Shown here piece after piece: positions 42,330-63,874 of a stretch of 64,000 nt of DNA (the stretch's first letter is position 1; every line of letters starts with the position of its first letter). Both the position numbers and the translations under genes were made by a program. The notes beneath the pieces were generated by a model that was not told the DNA's origin, did not search any database, and worked only from the letters and a program-made list of their open reading frames with translations. Source of the stretch: Yamagishiella unicocca (taxonomy: Eukaryota; Chlorophyta; Chlorophyceae; Chlamydomonadales; Volvocaceae). Where the stretch lies: positions 248,001 to 312,000 of the forward strand of contig BDSL01000102.1 in the NCBI GenBank assembly GCA_003116995.1, read 5' to 3'.

Positions 42330-42527
42330 CTGCATACGAGGATTGCCGTTGCCAGGACTGTGTCGCGACATCACAAACGACGAGCCGCAATATGTATCAG
42401 GAGGCCGACGAAGTGACGTTAAGTGCTGGCTTATCCGGCATGGGGGCCGGCCAATGAAGCGGCCCAATTTAAGCCACCGGAGCCTATGACAGCTATCCAC
42501 CTCACAATGTAGGCACACAGACCAATA

Positions 42528-42600
42528 GTAACTGTTGCAGTGGGCCCCAGACCGGAAGGCTGTTGCAATTGGGCGCATCGCCAGCGACGCTGAAAAAGAC
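42528..42600 (-). mobile_element. LINE/SINE-like 3' tail, unit A1
   Basis: Read on the minus strand, it shares GTCTTTTTCAG, GGCGATGCGCCC and GGTCTG(G) blocks with the tail of the LINE fragment at 45671-45737. It lies about 370 bp downstream of tRNA-Tyr in the same orientation. Related copies lie at 46478-46543, 47812-47877, 51106-51171 and 52440-52505. Confidence 0.6.
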
Positions 42601-42973
42601 GCAGGAACGAGGAAACATCAGTCGGCCAAGCTACGGCAAACGACCAGCAACCCCGAGCAGAGAACAAACAGCAGCAGCAGCAGCCTCCCAGGGGGAAGTA
42701 GCCGAAATGTCCCCTCATGAGTACTACCAACTGCAGCAGGCTGCAGCCCAACCCCCTTATTCATGGAGGGCAGGTATGGGCCACTATGCGGAATAGACTG
42801 CGGGATCAGCTAACCCTGTGGCATGTGCGATTTATCACACCTGCATAACAACAAGGTCGCACCAGCAATATGCCATACCAGCAGGCTTGGGGCCACCCAG
42901 CATGGCGCTCGGTTACCAAGAAGGTCCCCATGGCACCCAGGAACCTTAACATTACCTCAGCTTGCAGCTGATG

Positions 42974-43060
42974 TCCTCTCAGCCCGGATCGAACGGGCGA
43001 CCTAAGGATGTCAGTGTTAACCATTACAGTCCTTCGCTCTTCCAGCTGAGCTATGAGAGG
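42974..43060 (-). tRNA. tRNA-Tyr (GTA) with intron, unit A1
   Basis: Acceptor CCTCTCA pairs with TGAGAGG. It has a D arm (TAGCTCAGCTGG), an anticodon stem AAGGA/TCCTT and a loop CTGTAA interrupted after position 37 by a 14-nt intron. T arm GCCCG-TTCGATC-CGGGC. C1-G72 is the eukaryotic tyrosine identity pair. No T4 run follows for about 370 nt. Confidence 0.95.
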
Positions 43061-43061
43061 A

Positions 43062-43133
43062 TATCGAGACCAGGTTTCGATCCTGGGACCTCGGGGTTAT
43101 GAGCCCCGCACGCTTCCGCTGCGCCATCTCGAT
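43062..43133 (-). tRNA. Initiator tRNA-Met (CAT), unit A1
   Basis: 72-nt tRNA. Acceptor ATCGAGA pairs with TCTCGAT (A1-U72), the anticodon stem ends in three G-C pairs around CTCATAA, and the T loop is ATCGAAA. These are hallmarks of a cytosolic initiator. One nucleotide (43061) separates its 3' end from tRNA-Tyr, so a dicistronic transcript is likely. Confidence 0.96.
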
Positions 43134-43224
43134 CGCTGTACGACAAGACTAATGACGGATTTACGTCGTACAGATTTGTACGGCGAGCCGGCAAGGGGCC
43201 AAGCATGGGCCACCAAAGGAGCTG

Positions 43225-43375
43225 TTGAGAAGGGGGCAACGGGCTGTGGGTGGGGGCTGAGGTGGAAGAGGGGATGTTGGGCTGTGGGGCAGGGCAGGGG
43301 CCGTGGGGCAAAGGGCCCCTGTGGGGCAAGGGGCTGTTGGGAAAGGGCCTGTTGGGAAGATCGGAAGAAGGGCTG
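43225..43375. repeat. G-rich degenerate repeat upstream of the tRNAs
   Basis: Runs such as GTGGGGCAAAGGGCCCCTG and GGGCCTGTTGGGAA recur, with many GGG/GGGG tracts. Copies occur in all five units (for example 47324-47475 and 48472-48622). The overlapping Pro- or Gly-rich frames are by-products. Confidence 0.8.
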
Positions 43376-43958
43376 CGGGGAGCGATCCATAGGAGCATTG
43401 TCAGTGCGTCAGCACATTGCCAGTGCATCAGCATAGTCCTACCCGCATGCACCACGGATTGTGTTTGTTACAGCTTTGACGGGCGATGAATGCACCGGGT
43501 CGCCGACCTACCCGAGTGGCCAGTCACAGCATTAAGGGGCTGAGCAACAAAACCGCGGCCTCAACGGTGATGACGACTGCCACACCATGTCAGCACCCGA
43601 GCAGGGACCCCCGCAGGCAAATGTGCACCCCCGCGCCTTGGCCGCTGGCACGTCGTGGAAATTGGGCCGACAGTACTGCCTGCCCAGAGGAAGAATGCGA
43701 ATGGACCCCCAACTCTTGAAGCCCAAAATACGGGGTGTTGAGGGTGTTGTTGCCACCTACTCGCCGCTCCATATATAACCCTGAAAGGTGCCGTGAATAT
43801 TCTTCACCAGCACATGGTTCACCACCTCACCACCCTCAAATACGTTATTTGTGCACATCAGCGTTAAATATCTTCGATTATCGTGTGTCGCCACATGCAA
43901 ATAGCTCGGCAAAAGTGGTGTTGAACCTTTCGACCACCAGCTAGACAAAATCGCCCTG

Positions 43959-44083
43959 GTTGTTGTAACGGTTTCAGTGGGTTCCAGACCAAAAGGTAAA
44001 ACCATCGGGCACATCGCCGGACACTGAGGCGCCCGATGGTTCTACCTCTTGGTCTGGAACCCACTGTAATCGTTACAACAACA
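43959..44083. mobile_element. Palindromic pair of LINE-like tails (copy in A2 at 49206-49330)
   Basis: Two tail copies face each other around a 20-nt spacer, so about 50 bp on each side form an inverted repeat ending in GTTGTTGTAAC / GTTACAACAAC. It could be a MITE-like fold-back element or a product of twin insertion. Confidence 0.75.
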
Positions 44084-44160
44084 ACAATGATTCGGTGGGA
44101 CAGGGTTACAGGGACCCAAAGTCAAATAGTTTCCCCAAGACGGAGGAGACAGAGACCCTG

Positions 44161-44779
44161 GTTGTTGTAATCGTTACAGTGGGCTCCAGACCTTAAAAGG
44201 TAGAGCCATCGGGCGCATCGCCTGACACTGAAAAAGACAAGGAAAGCAGAGAAAACCAACGGTTCCGAAAGACAAACCACCCAGAGCCTCACAACCGAGA
44301 GCCCAGAGGAAACAGCAAGCACCAATACACAGGGGGAGGTTGCGCTGATGGCTCCCCTGCACATGGCCACATGTATCCCAAGCAGACCCCCGAATGGAGA
44401 GACAGCAGCACGCCTCGGCAACACAATCGGATAACTCCCCCCCCAAGATCCCGAAAACGTCCCACACCCGAAACGGGCCGATGCCCATAGCGAGACGGGA
44501 AGAAACAATGGTACGTAATACCATCAACCAGTTGAGGTCAACACCAACAGCAGTCTCTAGAAAAAGGCAGACCGGCAACACGCCCGAATGGCTGAGCCGT
44601 GGCGCAACCTTCGCCTGCAATACGGAAACCACTTCAGTATGCAACGCCAGGTAGCTTTGCAGGACTTGCGTAGGCTGCGTACTGGCACCGGCTGCGGCAT
44701 GCGCGAGAGACACCAGAGCCGACGAAGCTGTGTCGGCGAAAGCTACCAGAGTCCAGAGAAATGCTGAAAGAAGACCACC
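44161..44779 (-). mobile_element. 619-bp insertion present only in unit A1
   Basis: A1 and A2 are otherwise collinear; A2 reads ACCCTGGTATTGTACC across the empty point. The left end of the extra DNA is exactly the tail terminus TTGTTGTAATCG, so it looks like a truncated minus-oriented element whose 3' end lies at 44161. No clear target-site duplication. Confidence 0.65.
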
Positions 44780-44843
44780 GTATTGTACCGTACATTGTGT
44801 TCACATGCCCGGCTTACAACTGCTGGGGCCCAGGCTTCCAATT

Positions 44844-45736
44844 CTCACATGCAGACGGCAGCAGCAGCCCCCTGTGGGTGCGGTGCGCCGGCTGGTGCGT
44901 CTCCAGGGGCGGGTACCCCCCGCCTACACCACTTTTGGTTCTGCCCGGTGGCTCAAACAGTGATTGCCCAACTCGAGACCCAGCTCGGTGCAGGGGTGAC
45001 ACGGGCGCAAGTTTGGTTGGTGCAAGCACCTCCCGGGGTGCAGTCCTGCGTCTGGGATGTAGTAGTCCTGGCGGCTATTACGGCCATGGAGGTGGGGCGC
45101 CGGTTTATGGCCGCGGCCTTGAAAAGGGCGGCTGCTGGTGGTCCCCCTCTTACTCCGGGTAGCGGTCTTCTGGATCGTGCCGTTCGCCGTGGGGTGGTGG
45201 AGTTTTGGGCCCTGCTGAGGGGCTTTGCTGCGCTGGGGCTTCCCCAGAAAGGCTGGGATGCAGTGGGGCCTCGGCATCCTTTCTTGCGGGTTGTTCTCAG
45301 TCGCCTCGTGTGCGGGGGACCGGCTGAGGTACTGGTGGATTCGTGATCGGCCTGAGTTGTCTTGGGGAGCGGGGTTTCCTGTGCTTCATACTTTCCGGCT
45401 CTATAGGCGTGTTGAGCCCTGTTTGGGATCCGTGCCTTATGGGATGAGAGGTGGCTGGTTCCGATGTTTTGCATCGTTGCGGCGCTTCACTGGTTCGTCG
45501 GGTGATGGGTTGTTAGGTTGGTTGGTGGCCAGTTCCTGATAGGGGAGCCTCTAGTGCAAATTCCCCCTGGGGTGCTGGCTGCTGCTCAGTGTGCTTACAA
45601 CCTGTCGCTTTGGTGTTCTGGTGGTTTGCCTTTGTTCCGGTGCATGTCGGTCTTTGTTTCCTCCGTCTTTTTCAGTGTCAGGCGATGCGCCCGATGGTTC
45701 TACCTCTTGGTCTGGAACCCACTGTAATCGTTACAA
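44844..45736 (+). mobile_element. 5'-truncated LINE-like fragment with CCAAT duplication, unit A1
   Basis: Flanked by CCAAT at 44839-44843 and 45737-45741. It encodes, within 44783-45346, a C-terminal piece with a Cys/His pattern (PCGCG, then LHHFWFCPVAQ) like the zinc-knuckle end of LINE reverse transcriptases. It ends in the tail TTTTCAGTGTCAGGCGATG ... CGTTACAA. No catalytic reverse transcriptase domain remains. Confidence 0.6.
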
Positions 45737-46915
45737 CCAATGATGTCACGACTCCCAACCGAAAAACACAAAATGACCAAGAGCGCTGCGGCGAGCATGC
45801 ATTGGCAAAGAGAGTCAACAGAGGGTACCTGCCGTACAACGGCTGCGCAGCGGCGTACGCTCGTCCACACGGTGGCTAGATCGACGGCCACCGCCGCCGC
45901 AACACTCCCACCAAGGTCCCTCGTGCGCTTCTTGCGCCAGCACATAGTACATCTCACGAACCAATTAATGTCACCGTCCGCAGTGATACCACCAAAGAAT
46001 GCTGTGCGCTCAACTTGAATACACCGTAGCCTGCAGTGCCTGCGCCTGCCCCTGGTCGCAGCAGCCCCAACCAAGCCGTCGCTCGCTGTCGCTGGGAGTG
46101 GCCGTCCCTTGGCCCCCCGGCTGCTGCTGGGAAGGCAACATGCACACCGCCTGCCTCCCGGCAATGTACACCCTTAGCTCCCTGCTCCGCCCGCCTCCCT
46201 CAGCTGCGGCTGCGCAGCGGCTTGGTTGCACGCGTTTGACTGCACCCCACACCCCACAGCGCGAACTCCATGTAAGGCCACCACGAGCGGCGGCATGGTG
46301 AGTGTGTGGGCAGCCAACAGGAGGGCCGACCTGCAAAGTAAGCTGGCGCTCAGGGGGTGAGGCGGCCCTCCCACAATGCAGCGCACGTGCGGGCCTCCTC
46401 GCTCCCGGCCCGTGTTGCTGTGCTGCCTGCTCACCGAATGGACGGTGGCGTGGCGGAGCGCACCCACACGCCACAACAGTAACTGTTGCAGTGGGCCGGA
46501 AGGTAGAGCAATTGGGCGCATCGCCAGCGACGCTGAAAGAGACGCAGGAACGAAGAAAAACCAGTCGACCAAGCTACGACAAACGACCAGCAACCCCGAG
46601 CAGAGAACAAACAGCAGTAGCAGCCTCCCAGGGGGAAGTAGCCGAAATGTCCCCTCATCAGGATTACACCAATTGCAGCAGGCTGCAGCCCAACCCCCTT
46701 ATTCATGGAGGCCAGGTATGGGCCACTATGCGGAATAGACTGCGGGATCAGCTAACCCTGTGGCATGTGCGATATATCACACCTGCATAACAACAAGGTC
46801 GCTCCAGCAATATGCCATAACAGCAGGCTTGGGGCCACCCAGCATGGCGCTCGGTTACCAAGAAGGTCCCCATGGCGCCCAGGAACCTTAACATTACCTC
46901 AGCTTGCAGCTGATG

Positions 46916-47002
46916 TCCTCTCAGCCCGGATCGAACGGGCGACCTAAGGATGTCAGTGTTAACCATTACAGTCCTTCGCTCTTCCAGCTGAGCTATGAGA
47001 GG
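46916..47002 (-). tRNA. tRNA-Tyr (GTA) with intron, unit B1
   Basis: Same 87-nt gene as in unit A1, with the same 14-nt intron and cloverleaf stems. Confidence 0.95.
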
Positions 47003-47003
47003 A

Positions 47004-47075
47004 TATCGAGACCAGGTTTCGATCCTGGGACCTCGGGGTTATGAGCCCCGCACGCTTCCGCTGCGCCATCTCGAT
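47004..47075 (-). tRNA. Initiator tRNA-Met (CAT), unit B1
   Basis: Same 72-nt initiator, one nucleotide upstream of tRNA-Tyr. A poly(A)-tailed insertion lies 76 bp upstream. Confidence 0.95.
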
Positions 47076-47150
47076 CGCTGTACGACATGACTAATGACGG
47101 ATTTACGTCGTACAGATTTGTACGGCGAGCCGGCAAGGGGCCAAGCATGG

Positions 47151-47303
47151 ATTTTTTTTTTAATGGGCACTTGTGGGCAAGTAGGTTTGTGGTTGAACCT
47201 GCTGGTCGAGGTTGTCGTTGATGGGGGTGGAGATACAGAGCTTATGACACGGTCAGGTGTCGTACCCCAGCGTCGGGGTCCTGTAACGCAAGGAATTTTC
47301 AAA
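47151..47303 (-). mobile_element. 153-bp poly(A)-tailed insertion in unit B1
   Basis: Absent from A1 and A2 at the same site. It is flanked by ATGG on both sides (47147-47150 and 47304-47307). The minus strand ends in ten A, as expected for a retroposed short element. The copy in B2 is at 51779-51931. Confidence 0.65.
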
Positions 47304-48220
47304 ATGGGCCACCAAAGGAGCTGTTGAGAAGGGGGCAACGGGCTGTGGGTGGGGGCTGAGGTGGAAGAGGGGATGTTGGGCTGTGGGGCAGGGCAGGGGC
47401 CGTGGGGCAAAGGGCCCCTGTGGGGCAAGGGGCTGTTGGGAAAGGGCCTGTTGGGAAGATCGGAAGAAGGGCTGCGGGGAGCGATCCATAGGAGCATTGT
47501 CAGTGTGTCAGCACATTGCCAGTGCATCAGCATAGTCCTACCCGCATGCACCACGGATTGTGTGTGTGCGCCACCCACCACAGCCCCACGACGCGCACTC
47601 CATGTAAGGCCACCACGAGCGGCAGCACAGTGAGAGTGCGGGCAGCCAACAGGACGGCCGACCTGCAAAAGTACGCTGGCGCTCAAGGGGGAGCGATGGC
47701 CCTCCCGCAATGCAGCGCACGTGTGGGCCTCCTCGCTCCCGGCCCGTGTTGCTGTGCTGCCTGCTCACCGTATGGACGGTGGCGTGGTGGAGCGCACCCA
47801 CACGCCACAACAGTAACTGTTGCAGTGGGCCGGAAGGTAGAGCAATTGGGCGCATCACCAGCGACGCTGAAAAAGACACAGGAACGAGGAAACATCAGTC
47901 GGCCAAGCTATGGCAAACGACCAGCAACCCCGAGCAGAGAACAAACAGCAGCAGTAGCAGCCTCCCAGGGGGAAGTAGCCGAAATGTCCCCTCATGAGTA
48001 CTACACCAACTGCAGCAGGCTGCAGCCCAACCTCTCAGTCATGGAGGCTAGGAATGGGCCACTATGCGGAATTTACTGCAGGACCAGCTGTCACTGTGGC
48101 ACCTGCGATTTATTGCATCTGCATAACAACAAGGTCGCTCCAGCAATATGCCATAACAGCAGGCCTGGGGCCACCCATGACGCCCAGGAACCTTAACATT
48201 ACCTCAGCTTGCAGCTGATG

Positions 48221-48307
48221 TCCTCTCAGCCCGGATCGAACGGGCGACCTAAGGATGTCAGTGTTAACCATTACAGTCCTTCGCTCTTCCAGCTGAGCTA
48301 TGAGAGG
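48221..48307 (-). tRNA. tRNA-Tyr (GTA) with intron, unit A2
   Basis: Same gene and intron as in unit A1, at an offset of 5247. Confidence 0.95.
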
Positions 48308-48308
48308 A

Positions 48309-48380
48309 TATCGAGACCAGGTTTCGATCCTGGGACCTCGGGGTTATGAGCCCCGCACGCTTCCGCTGCGCCATCTCGAT
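48309..48380 (-). tRNA. Initiator tRNA-Met (CAT), unit A2
   Basis: Same initiator sequence and 1-nt spacing as in unit A1. Confidence 0.95.
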
Positions 48381-49471
48381 CGCTGTACGACAAGACTAAT
48401 GACGGATTTACGTCGTACAGATTTGTACGGCGAGCCGGCAAGGGGCCAAGCATGGGCCACCAAAGGAGCTGTTGAGAAGGGGGCAACGGGCTGTGGGTGG
48501 GGGCTGAGGTGGAAGAGGGGATGTTGGGCTGTGGGGCAGGGCAGGGGCCGTGGGGCAAAGGGCCCCTGTGGGGCAAGGGGCTGTTGGGAAAGGGCCTGTT
48601 GGGAAGATCGGAAGAAGGGCTGCGGGGAGCGATCCATAGGAGCATTGTCAGTGCGTCAGCACATTGCCAGTGCATCAGCATAGTCCTACCCGCATGCACC
48701 ACGGATTGTGTTTGTTACAGCTTTGACGGGCGATGAATGCACCGGGTCGCCGACCTACCCGAGTGGCCAGTCACAGCATTAAGGGGCTGAGCAACAAAAC
48801 CGCGGCCTCAACGGTGATGACGACTGCCACACCATGTCAGCACCCGAGCAGGGACCCCCGCAGGCAAATGTGCACCCCCGCGCCTTGGCCGCTGGCACGT
48901 CGTGGAAATTGGGCCGACAGTACTGCCTGCCCAGAGGAAGAATGCGAATGGACCCCCAACTCTTGAAGCCCAAAATACGGGGTGTTGAGGGTGTTGTTGC
49001 CACCTACTCGCCGCTCCATATATAACCCTGAAAGGTGCCGTGAATATTCTTCACCAGCACATGGTTCACCACCTCACCACCCTCAAATACGTTATTTGTG
49101 CACATCAGCGTTAAATATCTTCGATTATCGTGTGTCGCCACATGCAAATAGCTCGGCAAAAGTGGTGTTGAACCTTTCGACCACCAGCTAGACAAAATCG
49201 CCCTGGTTGTTGTAACGGTTTCAGTGGGTTCCAGACCAAAAGGTAAAACCATCGGGCACATCGCCGGACACTGAGGCGCCCGATGGTTCTACCTCTTGGT
49301 CTGGAACCCACTGTAATCGTTACAACAACAACAATGATTCGGTGGGACAGGGTTACAGGGACCCAAAGTCAAATAGTTTCCCCAAGACGGAGGAGACAGA
49401 GACCCTGGTATTGTACCGTACATTGTGTTCACATGCCCGGCTTACAACTGCTGGGGCCCAGGCTTCCAATT

Positions 49472-50364
49472 CTCACATGCAGACGGCAGCAGCAGCCCCC
49501 TGTGGGTGCGGTGCGCCGGCTGGTGCGTCTCCAGGGGCGGGTACCCCCCGCCTACACCACTTTTGGTTCTGCCCGGTGGCTCAAACAGTGATTGCCCAAC
49601 TCGAGACCCAGCTCGGTGCAGGGGTGACACGGGCGCAAGTTTGGTTGGTGCAAGCACCTCCCGGGGTGCAGTCCTGCGTCTGGGATGTAGTAGTCCTGGC
49701 GGCTATTACGGCCATGGAGGTGGGGCGCCGGTTTATGGCCGCGGCCTTGAAAAGGGCGGCTGCTGGTGGTCCCCCTCTTACTCCGGGTAGCGGTCTTCTG
49801 GATCGTGCCGTTCGCCGTGGGGTGGTGGAGTTTTGGGCCCTGCTGAGGGGCTTTGCTGCGCTGGGGCTTCCCCAGAAAGGCTGGGATGCAGTGGGGCCTC
49901 GGCATCCTTTCTTGCGGGTTGTTCTCAGTCGCCTCGTGTGCGGGGGACCGGCTGAGGTACTGGTGGATTCGTGATCGGCCTGAGTTGTCTTGGGGAGCGG
50001 GGTTTCCTGTGCTTCATACTTTCCGGCTCTATAGGCGTGTTGAGCCCTGTTTGGGATCCGTGCCTTATGGGATGAGAGGTGGCTGGTTCCGATGTTTTGC
50101 ATCGTTGCGGCGCTTCACTGGTTCGTCGGGTGATGGGTTGTTAGGTTGGTTGGTGGCCAGTTCCTGATAGGGGAGCCTCTAGTGCAAATTCCCCCTGGGG
50201 TGCTGGCTGCTGCTCAGTGTGCTTACAACCTGTCGCTTTGGTGTTCTGGTGGTTTGCCTTTGTTCCGGTGCATGTCGGTCTTTGTTTCCTCCGTCTTTTT
50301 CAGTGTCAGGCGATGCGCCCGATGGTTCTACCTCTTGGTCTGGAACCCACTGTAATCGTTACAA
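49472..50364 (+). mobile_element. LINE-like fragment, copy in unit A2
   Basis: Same fragment at an offset of 4628, duplicated together with unit A rather than inserted separately. Confidence 0.6.
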
Positions 50365-51543
50365 CCAATGATGTCACGACTCCCAACCGAAAAACACAAA
50401 ATGACCAAGAGCGCTGCGGCGAGCATGCATTGGCAAAGAGAGTCAACAGAGGGTACCTGCCGTACAACGGCTGCGCAGCGGCGTACGCTCGTCCACACGG
50501 TGGCTAGATCGACGGCCACCGCCGCCGCAACACTCCCACCAAGGTCCCTCGTGCGCTTCTTGCGCCAGCACATAGTACATCTCACGAACCAATTAATGTC
50601 ACCGTCCGCAGTGATACCACCAAAGAATGCTGTGCGCTCAACTTGAATACACCGTAGCCTGCAGTGCCTGCGCCTGCCCCTGGTCGCAGCAGCCCCAACC
50701 AAGCCGTCGCTCGCTGTCGCTGGGAGTGGCCGTCCCTTGGCCCCCCGGCTGCTGCTGGGAAGGCAACATGCACACCGCCTGCCTCCCGGCAATGTACACC
50801 CTTAGCTCCCTGCTCCGCCCGCCTCCCTCAGCTGCGGCTGCGCAGCGGCTTGGTTGCACGCGTTTGACTGCACCCCACACCCCACAGCGCGAACTCCATG
50901 TAAGGCCACCACGAGCGGCGGCATGGTGAGTGTGTGGGCAGCCAACAGGAGGGCCGACCTGCAAAGTAAGCTGGCGCTCAGGGGGTGAGGCGGCCCTCCC
51001 ACAATGCAGCGCACGTGCGGGCCTCCTCGCTCCCGGCCCGTGTTGCTGTGCTGCCTGCTCACCGAATGGACGGTGGCGTGGCGGAGCGCACCCACACGCC
51101 ACAACAGTAACTGTTGCAGTGGGCCGGAAGGTAGAGCAATTGGGCGCATCGCCAGCGACGCTGAAAGAGACGCAGGAACGAAGAAAAACCAGTCGACCAA
51201 GCTACGACAAACGACCAGCAACCCCGAGCAGAGAACAAACAGCAGTAGCAGCCTCCCAGGGGGAAGTAGCCGAAATGTCCCCTCATCAGGATTACACCAA
51301 TTGCAGCAGGCTGCAGCCCAACCCCCTTATTCATGGAGGCCAGGTATGGGCCACTATGCGGAATAGACTGCGGGATCAGCTAACCCTGTGGCATGTGCGA
51401 TATATCACACCTGCATAACAACAAGGTCGCTCCAGCAATATGCCATAACAGCAGGCTTGGGGCCACCCAGCATGGCGCTCGGTTACCAAGAAGGTCCCCA
51501 TGGCGCCCAGGAACCTTAACATTACCTCAGCTTGCAGCTGATG

Positions 51544-51630
51544 TCCTCTCAGCCCGGATCGAACGGGCGACCTAAGGATGTCAGTGTTAACCATTACAGT
51601 CCTTCGCTCTTCCAGCTGAGCTATGAGAGG
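51544..51630 (-). tRNA. tRNA-Tyr (GTA) with intron, unit B2
   Basis: Copy of the B1 gene at an offset of 4628. Confidence 0.95.
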
Positions 51631-51631
51631 A

Positions 51632-51703
51632 TATCGAGACCAGGTTTCGATCCTGGGACCTCGGGGTTATGAGCCCCGCACGCTTCCGCTGCGCCATCTC
51701 GAT
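51632..51703 (-). tRNA. Initiator tRNA-Met (CAT), unit B2
   Basis: Copy of the B1 initiator at an offset of 4628. Confidence 0.95.
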
Positions 51704-52848
51704 CGCTGTACGACATGACTAATGACGGATTTACGTCGTACAGATTTGTACGGCGAGCCGGCAAGGGGCCAAGCATGGATTTTTTTTTTAATGGGCACTT
51801 GTGGGCAAGTAGGTTTGTGGTTGAACCTGCTGGTCGAGGTTGTCGTTGATGGGGGTGGAGATACAGAGCTTATGACACGGTCAGGTGTCGTACCCCAGCG
51901 TCGGGGTCCTGTAACGCAAGGAATTTTCAAAATGGGCCACCAAAGGAGCTGTTGAGAAGGGGGCAACGGGCTGTGGGTGGGGGCTGAGGTGGAAGAGGGG
52001 ATGTTGGGCTGTGGGGCAGGGCAGGGGCCGTGGGGCAAAGGGCCCCTGTGGGGCAAGGGGCTGTTGGGAAAGGGCCTGTTGGGAAGATCGGAAGAAGGGC
52101 TGCGGGGAGCGATCCATAGGAGCATTGTCAGTGTGTCAGCACATTGCCAGTGCATCAGCATAGTCCTACCCGCATGCACCACGGATTGTGTGTGTGCGCC
52201 ACCCACCACAGCCCCACGACGCGCACTCCATGTAAGGCCACCACGAGCGGCAGCACAGTGAGAGTGCGGGCAGCCAACAGGACGGCCGACCTGCAAAAGT
52301 ACGCTGGCGCTCAAGGGGGAGCGATGGCCCTCCCGCAATGCAGCGCACGTGTGGGCCTCCTCGCTCCCGGCCCGTGTTGCTGTGCTGCCTGCTCACCGTA
52401 TGGACGGTGGCGTGGTGGAGCGCACCCACACGCCACAACAGTAACTGTTGCAGTGGGCCGGAAGGTAGAGCAATTGGGCGCATCACCAGCGACGCTGAAA
52501 AAGACACAGGAACGAGGAAACATCAGTCGGCCAAGCTATGGCAAACGACCAGCAACCCCGAGCAGAGAACAAACAGCAGCAGTAGCAGCCTCCCAGGGGG
52601 AAGTAGCCGAAATGTCCCCTCATGAGTACTACACCAACTGCAGCAGGCTGCAGCCCAACCTCTCAGTCATGGAGGCTAGGAATGGGCCACTATGCGGAAT
52701 TTACTGCAGGACCAGCTGTCACTGTGGCACCTGCGATTTATTGCATCTGCATAACAACAAGGTCGCTCCAGCAATATGCCATAACAGCAGGCCTGGGGCC
52801 ACCCATGACGCCCAGGAACCTTAACATTACCTCAGCTTGCAGCTGATG

Positions 52849-52935
52849 TCCTCTCAGCCCGGATCGAACGGGCGACCTAAGGATGTCAGTGTTAACCATT
52901 ACAGTCCTTCGCTCTTCCAGCTGAGCTATGAGAGG
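52849..52935 (-). tRNA. tRNA-Tyr (GTA) with intron, unit C
   Basis: Fifth copy. Stems and intron are intact although the rest of unit C is diverged. Confidence 0.95.
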
Positions 52936-52936
52936 A

Positions 52937-53008
52937 TATCGAGACCAGGTTTCGATCCTGGGACCTCGGGGTTATGAGCCCCGCACGCTTCCGCTGCGCC
53001 ATCTCGAT
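52937..53008 (-). tRNA. Initiator tRNA-Met (CAT), unit C
   Basis: Fifth copy, intact, with the same 1-nt spacing. Confidence 0.95.
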
Positions 53009-53083
53009 CGCTGTACGACATGACTAATGACGGATTTACGTCGTACAGATTTGTACGGCGAGCCGGCAAGGGGCCAAGCATGG

Positions 53084-53430
53084 GCGGGTGATGGGCAGTG
53101 CTTTCCCGCCGGGATAAGGGCGGGTGCCGCCTGTCGTGCGGCCACTGTAACGCGGTCTCTCTCTCTCTCTCTCCTTTGCTGGTTCGAGATACGAGTGGTG
53201 CGGGTGATGGGCAGGTGAGCCAATGGGGGCTTTTGTGGTGGTTTTGACGCGTAAGGGTGGCCTGCATGGGGCCGTGTCCTGCCGTCGCTTGTGCTGACTT
53301 TGCATGATGCTGTTTGCCTGCTGTTGCCCGTACCCGACCTTGGTTCCGTGTCTCTTCCGCAGTGCTTTCCCGCCGGGATAAGGGCGGGTGCCGCCTGTCG
53401 TGCGGCCACTGTAACGCGGTCTCTCTCTCT
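53084..53430. mobile_element. Insertion with 72-bp direct terminal repeats, unit C
   Basis: Occupies the same insertion point as in B1. Direct repeats at 53095-53166 and 53359-53430 share GCAGTGCTTTCCCGCC and a (TC)n end around a 192-bp middle. It resembles a miniature LTR element (TRIM) but lacks a visible primer-binding site. Confidence 0.5.
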
Positions 53431-54970
53431 TTGGGCCACCAAAGGAGCTGTTGAGAAGGGGGCAACGGGCTGTGGGTGGGGGCTGAGGTGGAAGAGGGGA
53501 TGTTGGGCTGTGGGGCAGGGCAGGGGCCGTGGGGCAAAGGGCCCCTGTGAGGCAAGGGGCTGTTGGGAAAGGGCTTGTTGGGAAGATCGGAAGAAGGGAT
53601 GCGGGGAGTGATCCGTAGGAGCATTGTCAGTGCGTCAGCATAGTCCTACCCGTATGCACCACGGATTGTGTGTGTTTGTTACAGCTTTGAGGGGCGACGA
53701 ATGCAACGGGTTGCCGACGTACCTGAGTGGGCAGTCATAGCATCACGAGGCTCAGCAACAAAGCCACGGCCTCAACGGTGATGACGACTACCACACCATG
53801 TCAGCCCCCGAGCAGGGATCCCCGCAAGCAAATGTGCACCCCCGCGCCATGGCCCCTGGCGTGTCACAAAAATTGGGCCTACAGTAGCGCCTGCTCAGAG
53901 TTAAAGGGTGCGAACGGACCCCCAACTCTTGAAGCCCCAAATACGGGGTGTTGTTGCCACCGCACTCACCGCTCCATAACCCTGAAAGATGCCGCGAGTA
54001 TTCTTCACCAGCACATGGTTCGCCACCCTCAAATACATTCTTTGTGCACATCAGCGTTGAACATCTTCGATTATCGTGTTTCGCCACATGCAAATAGCTC
54101 GGCAAAAGTGGTGTTGAATCTTTCGGCCGCGAGCTCGACAAAATCGACCTGGTATTGTACCCTACATTGCGTTCACATGCCCGGCCTACAACTGCTGGGG
54201 CCCAGGCTTCCAATACCAATGATGTCACGACTTCCAACCAAGAAACACAAAATGACCAAGCGCGCTGCGGCGAGCATGCAATGGCAAAGAGAGTCAACAG
54301 AGGGTACCTGCCGTACAACGGCTGCGCAGCGGCAGACGCTCGTCCACACGGTGACTAGATCGACGGCCACCGCCGCCGCAACGCTCCCACCAAAGTCCCT
54401 CGTGCGCTTCTTGCGCCAGCACATAGTACATCTCACGACCCAATTAATGTCACCGTCCACAATGATACCACCAAAGAATGCTGTGCGATCAACTTGAATA
54501 CACCGTAGCCTGCAGTGCCTGCGCCTGCCCCCGCACGCAGCAGCCCCCACCAAGCCAGCGCTCGCTGTCGCTGGGAATGGCCGTCCCTCGGCCCCCGGCT
54601 GCTGCTGGGAAGGCAACATGCACACCGCCTGCCTCCCGACAATGTACACCCTTAGCGCCCTGCTCCGCCCGCCTCCCTCAGCTGCGGCTGCGCAGTGGCT
54701 TGGTTGCACGCGGTTGACCGCACCCCGGGCGCCACCCACCACAGCCCCACAGCGCGCACTTCGTGTAAGGCCACCACGAGCGGCGGCATGGTGAGAGTGT
54801 GGGCAGCCACCAGGAGGGCCGACCTGCAAAGTACGCTGGCGCTCAGGGGGTGAGGCGGCCCTCCCACAGTGCAGCGCACGTATGGGCCTCCTCGCTCCCG
54901 GCCCGCGTTGCTGTGCTGCCTGCTCACCATATGGACGGTGGCGTGGCGGAGCGCACCCACACGCCACAAC

Positions 54971-55272
54971 ATCATGCATCTAATGTACACAAGGGCGCGC
55001 AACCGCTATCAACCGCTATCAACAGTTTTATTACCGGTAACAGGACGTCTGCGCAAACCAACCCAGGCAAAGCTCAGGATGTTTTTTCTCTCCTAGGACC
55101 TCCCTCTTGTCGTGTGGGGTGTCTCAAATTTCCTCCCTTTTTCGGTTCAACGGTTTACTCTCTGACCCCCCTCCCTTCTCCTAAACGGATTTTCCTCGCA
55201 TCCACGGGTCTTCCTCGAAACCCTCCCTTGCGAACCCTCAACTGCGCGGCTCCCCCTCAGCTGCGCGGCCCC
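54971..55272. other. Unique DNA between array and PTP-like gene
   Basis: No gene seen; 3' flank of the minus-strand gene ending at 55273. Confidence 0.5.
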
Positions 55273-62291: not shown

Positions 62292-63874
62292 ATGGCTTCT
62301 GGCGCACGGCGGCGTCCGCTGCCGAGCCAGCTCCATCGCCTGCTGGTGCTGGTTGCGCTGGCGCCCTTCTTCACAGATGGCGTACTGGCGCTGCGGCTTA
62401 TCTCCTTAGGCCGGATACGGGCAAAGCGGGGCGCGGATGCAAGCGATGGCGTCCTGCGCGAGGTCCTGTCACCGCAGTCGACCCTGTACTCACGCATCGC
62501 AGCCGGGCAGGTAGCGCTCGCTGGCGGCTCCAATTCCGCACCCTTATTAGCGACAGGTTCATCATCAAAGGTAGAACGGGTCTCCGCAGAAGGTGCTGAC
62601 GCAGCTTGTCTTCGCGACCCCGGCCTTGCCACGGTCTTCTCCTCGGAAGCAGCTCGCAGGCTCCCACGCCTCGCCCAAGACCCTAGCGTGCAGCTCGAAC
62701 CTGGGCCAGGGGGACACCCTCAGCATGACAGCGGCCAAAGCACTGAAGCTGGCGGCCACGGCCTCGACACCAGCGACCTCCCGCTCCAACACCAACAGCG
62801 GCAGCAGCAGCTGAGCGCTGCCGACCCACCCCCGCCCGAGTTCAACGTCGATGAGGCACGGGTCGCGGGTCAGCTCGCGTCCATCGCCTATTGCAGCCAC
62901 CCAGACCTGCTAGCGGCGTGGAACTGCAGCCGCTGCGTGGACGTGCCGGGGTTCGTATCGCACCGGGTGGTGTACGACTCGGTCTGGGACCTGGCAGCCT
63001 ACGCCGGGTACTACGCGCCGTGGAACGCGGTGGTGCTTTCCTTTCGGGGTACGGACTCGTCCAACTGGGGCCAGTGGGCGGAGAACATGCGGGCGTGGCG
63101 CACCGATCACATGTACCCGGTGCCGGACTTCCCGCACGCGCTCATCCACGCGGGGTTCTACACGCTGTGGACCGGCAGCACGCTGCAGGCCACCTTTGCG
63201 GAGGCGGTTTCGGAGCTGATGACGCTGCACCCCACGGCGCGCATGGTGGCGATCGGGCACTCCATGGGCGGCGCGCTGGCCCAGCTGGCGGCTCTGGAGT
63301 TCAAACTGGCGTACAATGGGACGAGCGCGACGGTGTACACGTTTGGGTCGCCGCGGGTGGGCAACCTGGCGTACCAGCAGGTGGGCGCGTGTGTGTGTGT
63401 GTTTTGGTTGGGCGGGTGGGAGCGAGGGGGAGCGTGGGGGAACGTGCTGAAGGGTCGGGAGGGGGAGCTTGAGAATGGGGGAAAAGAGGTGCGGAGAGAC
63501 AAGTGGGGTTACGATTCCAATCTCCATACCCCCTCCCCCTCCCTCCCGGCCCCCTGCCCGGGCGCCCTCGGCTCCCGCAGCTCTTCAACTCCTTCGTGGA
63601 CGTCTCATGGCGCTTCACGCACAACCGCGACATCGTGCCCAGCGTGCCGCTGCAGCTGATGGGCTTCCAGCACGTGGCGCGCGAGGTGTGGGAGGTGGAC
63701 GTGGAGGACCCGGGGGGCTCGGGCGGGGTGGAGCGCAAGCTGCTGCTGTGCGACGCCACCGGCGAGGACCCCTCCTGCCACAACTCCGCCTGCTACCTGG
63801 GGCTGTGCACCAGCATCGCGGACCACCTGTCGTACCTGGGGCTGCATATGTACCAGGACAGCGACGAGTGCTGA
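62292..63874 (+). CDS. Secreted class-3 (fungal-type) lipase
   Basis: Two exons, 62292-63380 and 63581-63874 (phase 0), encode 460 aa. An N-terminal signal peptide is visible (basic start, then LLVLVALAPFFTDGVLA). A variable Gln-rich region precedes the lipase domain: VAGQLASIAYCSHPDLLA, VVLSFRGTDSSNWGQW (oxyanion Thr/Asp region), the nucleophile elbow IGHSMGGALAQLAAL, TFGSPRVGNLAYQQ, the catalytic Asp in HNRDIVPSVP and the catalytic His in DHLSYLG. The Ser-Asp-His triad is complete. Several Cys in the C-terminus suit a disulfide-bonded secreted enzyme. It should hydrolyse acylglycerols or galactolipids outside the cytosol; the substrate is not shown. Confidence 0.94.

What the first reader, a model, noticed from the sequence alone, without database searches (positions are those of the whole stretch)
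42974..53008. Five dicistronic tRNA-iMet/tRNA-Tyr genes with a 1-nt spacer
Five times in 10 kb an initiator tRNA-Met is followed on the same strand, after one nucleotide, by an intron-containing tRNA-Tyr. All five pairs keep every stem, the initiator hallmarks (A1-U72, three G-C pairs, ATCGAAA loop) and the Tyr intron, even in diverged unit C. That suggests selection or very recent spread. One-nucleotide spacing means the iMet 3' end and Tyr 5' end must be made by cuts at almost the same bond. Co-transcribed tRNA clusters are known in Chlamydomonas; this pairing and amplification is, to my knowledge, unusual.
Basis: partly seen in the sequence, partly recalled or inferred. Interest (0 to 1): 0.8.

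Follow-up and report, generated by a model that had tools for sequence, protein, structure and literature searches.

The report
Tandem array of paired tRNA genes
A green alga carries five copies of a start-methionine tRNA gene fused almost end to end with a tyrosine tRNA gene, and they are best read as one recently copied pair in a genome that has other tightly packed and tandemly repeated tRNA genes.

Summary
Observation confirmed: five identical 160-nt minus-strand blocks, each an initiator tRNA-Met (72 nt), one T, and an intron-containing tRNA-Tyr (87 nt), at the stated places. They are one tandem array, not five independent events: units B/C and D/E are a near-perfect 4,628-bp duplication. 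The same genome (unnamed volvocine-type alga) has at least eight other loci with same-strand tRNA pairs at 0-11 nt, a second iMet-Tyr array, and arrays of at least 16 Lys and 29 Asn-like genes. Best reading: a Pol III dicistronic tRNA unit amplified by unequal exchange. Selection is not shown: near-identity also covers neighbouring non-gene DNA. Two repeat families found upstream of tRNA genes here inserted at nearly the same place, about 72-77 nt upstream of the iMet, which suggests Pol III factors bind there. Against an ordinary unit: no T4 terminator for 346-376 nt after Tyr, whereas 7 of 8 other pairs examined have one within 29 nt. Co-transcription is inferred; no RNA data were available. 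Known kind, with two side leads.

The parts
43062..43133 (-). unit A initiator tRNA-Met(CAT), 72 nt
42974..43060 (-). unit A tRNA-Tyr(GTA), 87 nt with a 14-nt intron; spacer to iMet is the single base 43061
47004..47075 (-). unit B iMet
46916..47002 (-). unit B Tyr
48309..48380 (-). unit C iMet
48221..48307 (-). unit C Tyr
51632..51703 (-). unit D iMet
51544..51630 (-). unit D Tyr
52937..53008 (-). unit E iMet
52849..52935 (-). unit E Tyr
43136..43173 (.). inverted repeat CTGTACGAC/GTCGTACAG just upstream of iMet, present in all five units; holds the 8-mer GTCGTACA/TGTACGAC twice
42523..42740 (-). terminal segment of a dispersed repeat family, about 200-233 nt downstream of Tyr; in all units; left edge of the repeated core
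44772..53085 (.). near-perfect tandem duplication: 44772-48457 repeated at 49400-53085 (99.9%), 4,628-bp offset, carrying units B+C and D+E
53086..53431 (.). repeat element inserted about 73-77 nt upstream of unit E iMet, with 72-nt direct repeats at 53095-53166 and 53359-53430; edges approximate
47151..47307 (.). second repeat element (A-run at its iMet-proximal end) inserted about 72-75 nt upstream of unit B iMet; copied in unit D at about 51779-51935; edges approximate
53432..54971 (.). diverged copy of the inter-gene part of the repeat unit without the tRNA core; right edge of the array

Best explanation
The locus is a tandem array of a dicistronic RNA polymerase III transcription unit. 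Pol III factors assemble on the iMet gene, the polymerase reads through the one-nucleotide spacer into Tyr, and the dimeric precursor is cut at the Tyr 5' end by RNase P. That leaves the iMet with a one-base trailer, removed by tRNase Z or an exonuclease before CCA is added; Tyr is spliced separately. The pair arose once, by apposition of an iMet and a Tyr gene, and was then multiplied by tandem duplication and unequal exchange, with repeat insertions upstream of the iMet along the way. SHOWN: the gene pairs, their identity, the repeat structure, the insertions. INFERRED: transcription, the dimeric precursor, the order of cuts, the route of duplication.
For: Both genes are intact, with covariance-model scores like those of other copies in the genome. 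The iMet is identical, 72 of 72, to 10 of the 12 other iMet copies compared. No T4 lies in the 160-nt block, so initiation at iMet should read into Tyr. The genome has other pairs: Cys-0-Arg, Lys-2-Gly (two loci), Ala-6-Ser, Thr-5-Ser, Ile-5-Thr, Thr-11-Thr, Asn with a second tRNA about 4 nt away. Two unrelated repeat inserts (units B/D and E) sit at nearly the same site 72-77 nt upstream of iMet, while A and C are uninterrupted. The same two families lie upstream of the nearest tRNA in 27 of 27 and 5 of 5 hits in held loci; 22 of 22 for the first when three upstream-only fetches are dropped; seven held loci without a detected tRNA gave no hit of either family. Tandem history: 4,628-bp duplication and mosaic divergence.
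Against: No T4+ within 376, 355, 346, 355 and 346 nt downstream of Tyr in units A-E, whereas 7 of 8 other pairs examined have one within 29 nt, so a canonical short dimeric precursor is not predicted. No transcript data. Tyr looks able to use its own internal promoter, so separate initiation is not excluded. Another array of this genome contains decayed copies (C8 array: one Tyr with its anticodon changed, one iMet with a base change, two Ile genes one base short), so amplified copies need not be active.
Confidence: 0.72

Rival explanations
1. Surplus array: the pairs are recent redundant copies that are silent or weakly transcribed, as in the silenced Ser/Tyr cluster of Arabidopsis, and contribute little tRNA.
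For: No nearby T4 terminator; recent duplication; at least 12 iMet and 10 Tyr copies lie elsewhere in the genome; a comparable array has decayed members. The Arabidopsis cluster is silenced in most tissues (PMC12308677, start of abstract in the listing).
Against: All ten genes are intact, and the upstream repeat insertions look like integration at Pol III-bound genes.
Confidence: 0.3
2. Each tRNA is transcribed on its own from its internal promoter; the 1-nt spacing is a by-product of how the pair arose.
For: Both genes keep standard tRNA sequences where the internal promoter lies (sequences; promoter role recalled).
Against: The upstream binding region of Tyr would lie inside iMet, and no T4 separates the two, so iMet transcripts should run into Tyr anyway.
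Confidence: 0.15
3. The pair is cargo of a mobile element whose end lies about 200-233 nt downstream of Tyr.
For: A dispersed repeat end (41 matches including the five here, 389 candidates) abuts the core in all five units and marks its left edge.
Against: Pattern searches of the window for that end gave plus-strand matches only (one search gave none at all), so no inverted partner was seen. The pair was found at full length and 100% identity only in this array (5 of 21 matches).
Confidence: 0.08
4. Part of the array (units D/E) is an assembly artefact.
For: The B/C and D/E blocks differ at only 4 of 3,686 sites; read depth could not be checked.
Against: A single-base difference at 48393 and the insert found only upstream of unit E mark the copies.
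Confidence: 0.12

Closest known systems
Dimeric pre-tRNA Ser-Met of Schizosaccharomyces pombe (PMC4234475, passages seen)
   Same: two different tRNAs in one dimeric precursor, one of them methionine (that it is the initiator is recalled), the other with an intron; the cut makes the 5' end of the second tRNA
   Different: Met is the second gene there and the first here; a several-base trailer lies between the two there (spacer length recalled as 7 nt), one base here; RNase MRP is implicated there, whereas a single protein-only RNase P serves nucleus and organelles in Chlamydomonas reinhardtii (PMC10941002, passage seen)
Tandem Tyr-Tyr-Ser array of Arabidopsis chromosome 1 (PMC12652284, passages; PMC12308677, start of abstract)
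   Same: tandem repetition of a heterotypic unit that includes tRNA-Tyr
   Different: 27 units there, five here; no near-zero spacer is mentioned in what was seen
tRNA clusters of Chlamydomonas and Volvox (PMC2888827, passages; PMC12652284, section 3.5)
   Same: 41% (Volvox carteri) and 56% (C. reinhardtii) of tDNAs within 1 kb of another; repeated clusters of two to five isotypes in 'Cre'
   Different: the exact iMet-T-Tyr unit was not in the passages seen; supplementary tables could not be read and Cognat et al. 2008 (recalled as the main study of C. reinhardtii tRNA genes) is not held

Membership tests
dicistronic (dimeric) nuclear tRNA genes | two tRNA genes on one strand with a short spacer and no terminator between them | tested here: met
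   1-nt spacer; no T4 in the 160-nt block
dicistronic (dimeric) nuclear tRNA genes | a common precursor RNA | not testable with these tools
   no expression data
dicistronic (dimeric) nuclear tRNA genes | Pol III terminator (T4 or more) soon after the second gene (usual, not strictly defining) | tested here: not met
   first T4+ at 346-376 nt in the five units; 7 of 8 other pairs within 29 nt
tandem heterotypic tRNA gene array | head-to-tail repetition of a unit with fixed order of different isotypes | tested here: met
cytosolic initiator tRNA-Met | A1-U72, G-C run in anticodon stem, A54/A60 T-loop (features recalled) | tested here: met
   drawing; identical to 10 of 12 other iMet copies
tRNA-Tyr | C1-G72, A73, GTA anticodon, intron after position 37 (features recalled) | tested here: met
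tRNA-derived SINE or mobile cargo | dispersed copies of the pair in the genome | tested here: not met
   of 21 matches only the five array copies cover the whole pair at 100%; the six C8 units match at 71-72% with a longer spacer

The most novel reading that the evidence does not exclude
This lineage has a class of near-zero-spacer tRNA operons with their own upstream element: the 8-mer GTCGTACA, an inverted repeat here, lies in the 60 nt upstream of 4 of 9 tight pairs against 1 of 31 other genes and 0 of 10 further single genes. At these operons one cut, or two nearly coincident cuts, makes the 3' end of one tRNA and the 5' end of the next.
Probability: 0.15. Interest if true: 0.55.

Novelty: new member of a known kind. 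Interest (0 to 1): 0.35.

Why it matters
Spacers of 0 or 1 nt raise the question of how RNase P and tRNase Z share a junction in a nucleus that, if it is like that of Chlamydomonas, uses a protein-only RNase P; the Cys/Arg pair with no spacer on C24 is an even cleaner test than the pair in the window. The array also holds two insertions 72-77 nt upstream of a Pol III gene beside uninterrupted copies, useful for asking how repeats find tRNA genes in green algae. The five-fold amplification itself is ordinary for this genome.

Tried and rejected
Selection on the pairs: not accepted, because the near-identical tract extends beyond the genes. One search printed an expectation from a hand-entered 3 in 411; recounting its own table gives 4 in 386 (or 3 in 377 if the tract ends at the first variable base), and one search has the corrected figures (P 0.19 or 0.28). 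The last part (a check of where units stop matching) failed with an error; insertion places rest. Transposon cargo: searches gave no minus-strand match. Pseudogene reading: not supported by scores. Folding the 160-nt dimer was uninformative (z -1.51; the lowest-energy fold keeps both acceptor stems but not a full iMet cloverleaf). Pfam on three open frames around the array: nothing. The GTCGTACA lead was noticed after the fact in the window and the C31 pair; one gene per cluster or array was kept and the rest dropped; a permutation over the best 8-mer gives 0.013. One search added ten Ser genes, all without a detected upstream tRNA and without the 8-mer, several with nearly the same upstream sequence, so no new tight pair tested it. 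T-runs: at C65 only the last Gly of the cluster was counted (T4 at 5 nt); the Gly genes followed by further tRNAs have theirs at 170 and 166 nt; the C20 pair had no T4 in the 45 nt held. Notes give 3/411 and about 33 Asn copies; the right figures are 4/386 and 29. Paper searches; no listing showed an iMet-Tyr pair with a 1-nt spacer, but most subscription papers and all supplements were out of reach.
Full report
WHAT IS THERE. Five minus-strand blocks of 160 nt, identical to each other, each hold an initiator tRNA-Met of 72 nt, a single T, and a tRNA-Tyr of 87 nt with a 14-nt intron. The window is part of an unnamed 133-Mb genome in 1,415 contigs. The nine best relatives of a lipase-like frame at 62292-63659, at 52-63% identity, are from Volvox, Pleodorina, Chlamydomonas, Astrephomene, Edaphochlamys and Gonium, so this is a volvocine-type green alga; the species was not identified.

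HOW THE ARRAY IS BUILT. Start-to-start spacings of the core are 3942, 1305, 3323 and 1305. The block 44772-48457, with units B and C, recurs at 49400-53085 with 4 differences in 3,686 sites, three of them adjacent at the edge. A and C are identical over 75 plus 954 aligned sites upstream of the genes, yet differ at 34 of 411 downstream sites. B and C differ at 50 of 590 sites further downstream, 1 of 47 in the first 72 downstream positions (which also hold part of a 31-nt gap), 0 of 160 in the genes and 1 of 75 upstream; A and B differ at 2 of 264 in the next shared upstream stretch. The first variable base lies 39 nt downstream of Tyr. So the near-identical tract is wider than the genes. At the tract's own rate, 4 in 386 non-gene sites, 1.66 changes are expected in 160 nt and none is seen with probability 0.19; at the downstream rate of 35 in 418 the probability would be 1.5e-6. 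Exchange or conversion with a breakpoint just downstream of Tyr explains this without selection, though selection is not excluded. To the right, 53432-54971 is a diverged copy of the inter-gene part without the tRNA core.

THE GENOME AROUND IT. Searching the genome with the pair gives 21 matches: the five pairs here; six units on contig C8 where iMet and Tyr are 45 nt apart and an Ile gene precedes them; six further iMet and four further Tyr places. Other same-strand pairs: Cys-0-Arg on C24, Lys-2-Gly on C65 and C20, Ala-6-Ser on C31, Thr-5-Ser on C116, Ile-5-Thr on C61, Thr-11-Thr on C5, and Asn with a second tRNA of unsure identity about 4 nt away on C8. Arrays: 16 Lys genes on C132, 29 Asn-like matches on C148 and 6 on C308, and a Phe/Pro/Cys array on C12. 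All are lower bounds, since only the best candidates are scored (63 of 3,122, 40 of 99). The C8 array shows decay: one Tyr has its anticodon changed, one iMet a base change and two Ile genes are a base short.

SIGNS OF ACTIVITY AND AGAINST IT. For: units B/D and unit E each carry a different insertion at nearly the same place, 72-77 nt upstream of the iMet, while A and C are uninterrupted. The element in E has 72-nt direct repeats and is abundant (66 matches); the one in B/D ends in a run of A and is also abundant (41 matches). In the loci held here the first family has 27 hits, all upstream of the nearest tRNA and 25 of 27 in the opposite orientation to it. Dropping three loci fetched with upstream sequence only leaves 22 of 22, of which 13 lie within 150 nt. 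Hits are not all independent: some loci hold two or three, and some hits are as short as 17-20 nt. The second family has 5 of 5 upstream, two of them the window's own duplicates. Seven held loci without a detected tRNA gave no hit of either family. The loci were mostly fetched because they hold tRNAs, so closeness to tRNA genes is partly by construction; the upstream bias is not. Repeats that aim at the neighbourhood of Pol III genes are known elsewhere (yeast Ty1 and Ty3, Dictyostelium TRE5: recalled), and such aim usually needs bound Pol III factors (recalled). Against: the first run of four T downstream of Tyr is at 376, 355, 346, 355 and 346 nt in units A-E, in the dispersed repeat end, while 7 of 8 other tight pairs have one within 29 nt; the eighth, on C20, has none in the 45 nt held. 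Some single genes here also lack a near T-run. Many yeast tRNA genes are read through past their terminators and functional terminators can lie far downstream (PMC4937561, abstract and passages).

HOW IT MOST LIKELY WORKS. Pol III starting at iMet meets no T4 before Tyr, so a dimer is expected whenever iMet is transcribed. Cutting at the Tyr 5' end, probably by a protein-only RNase P like the single one that serves nucleus and organelles in C. reinhardtii (PMC10941002, passage), leaves iMet with one extra base. These steps are inferred. In S. pombe a dimeric Ser-Met precursor is known and RNase MRP cuts it to a mature Met 5' end (PMC4234475, passages).

COMPARISON AND NOVELTY. Clustered tDNAs make up 41% in Volvox carteri and 56% in C. 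reinhardtii (PMC2888827, passages), and repeated clusters of two to five isotypes are reported for Ath, Cre and Cpu (PMC12652284, section 3.5). The window adds a member with a 1-nt spacer. The GTCGTACA lead (4 of 9 tight pairs against 1 of 31 others; 0 of 10 more single genes) was found after looking and needs a full genome count.

Noticed in passing
window 53095-53430 and 47167-47300: Two abundant repeat families whose hits in the held loci all lie upstream of the nearest tRNA gene (27 of 27 and 5 of 5; 13 of 22 usable hits of the first within 150 nt) and nearly all in the opposite orientation: probable tRNA-targeting elements.
   Followed up: partly
window 43136-43173 and the same place in units B-E; L026, L054, L067: 8-mer GTCGTACA/TGTACGAC shortly upstream of tight tRNA pairs (4 of 9) and rarely of other genes (1 of 31, then 0 of 10); post hoc.
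   Followed up: partly
L025 1553-1710 (contig C24): tRNA-Cys and tRNA-Arg(CCG) abut with no spacer by Rfam bounds, with a T-run 9 nt after Arg.
   Followed up: partly
contig C148 41818-62071: 29 matches to a tRNA-Asn query at 96% identity, mostly at about 655-bp spacing.
   Followed up: no
L011 7963-8076 and the same place in other C8 units: The 114-nt gap between Ile and iMet holds what looks by eye like the 3' half of another tRNA (a T-arm-like hairpin), not scored by Rfam or ARAGORN.
   Followed up: no
window 44164-45737: A repeat with inverted termini of about 80 nt and no Pfam hit in its 187-aa frame; its ends resemble the repeat end downstream of Tyr.
   Followed up: partly
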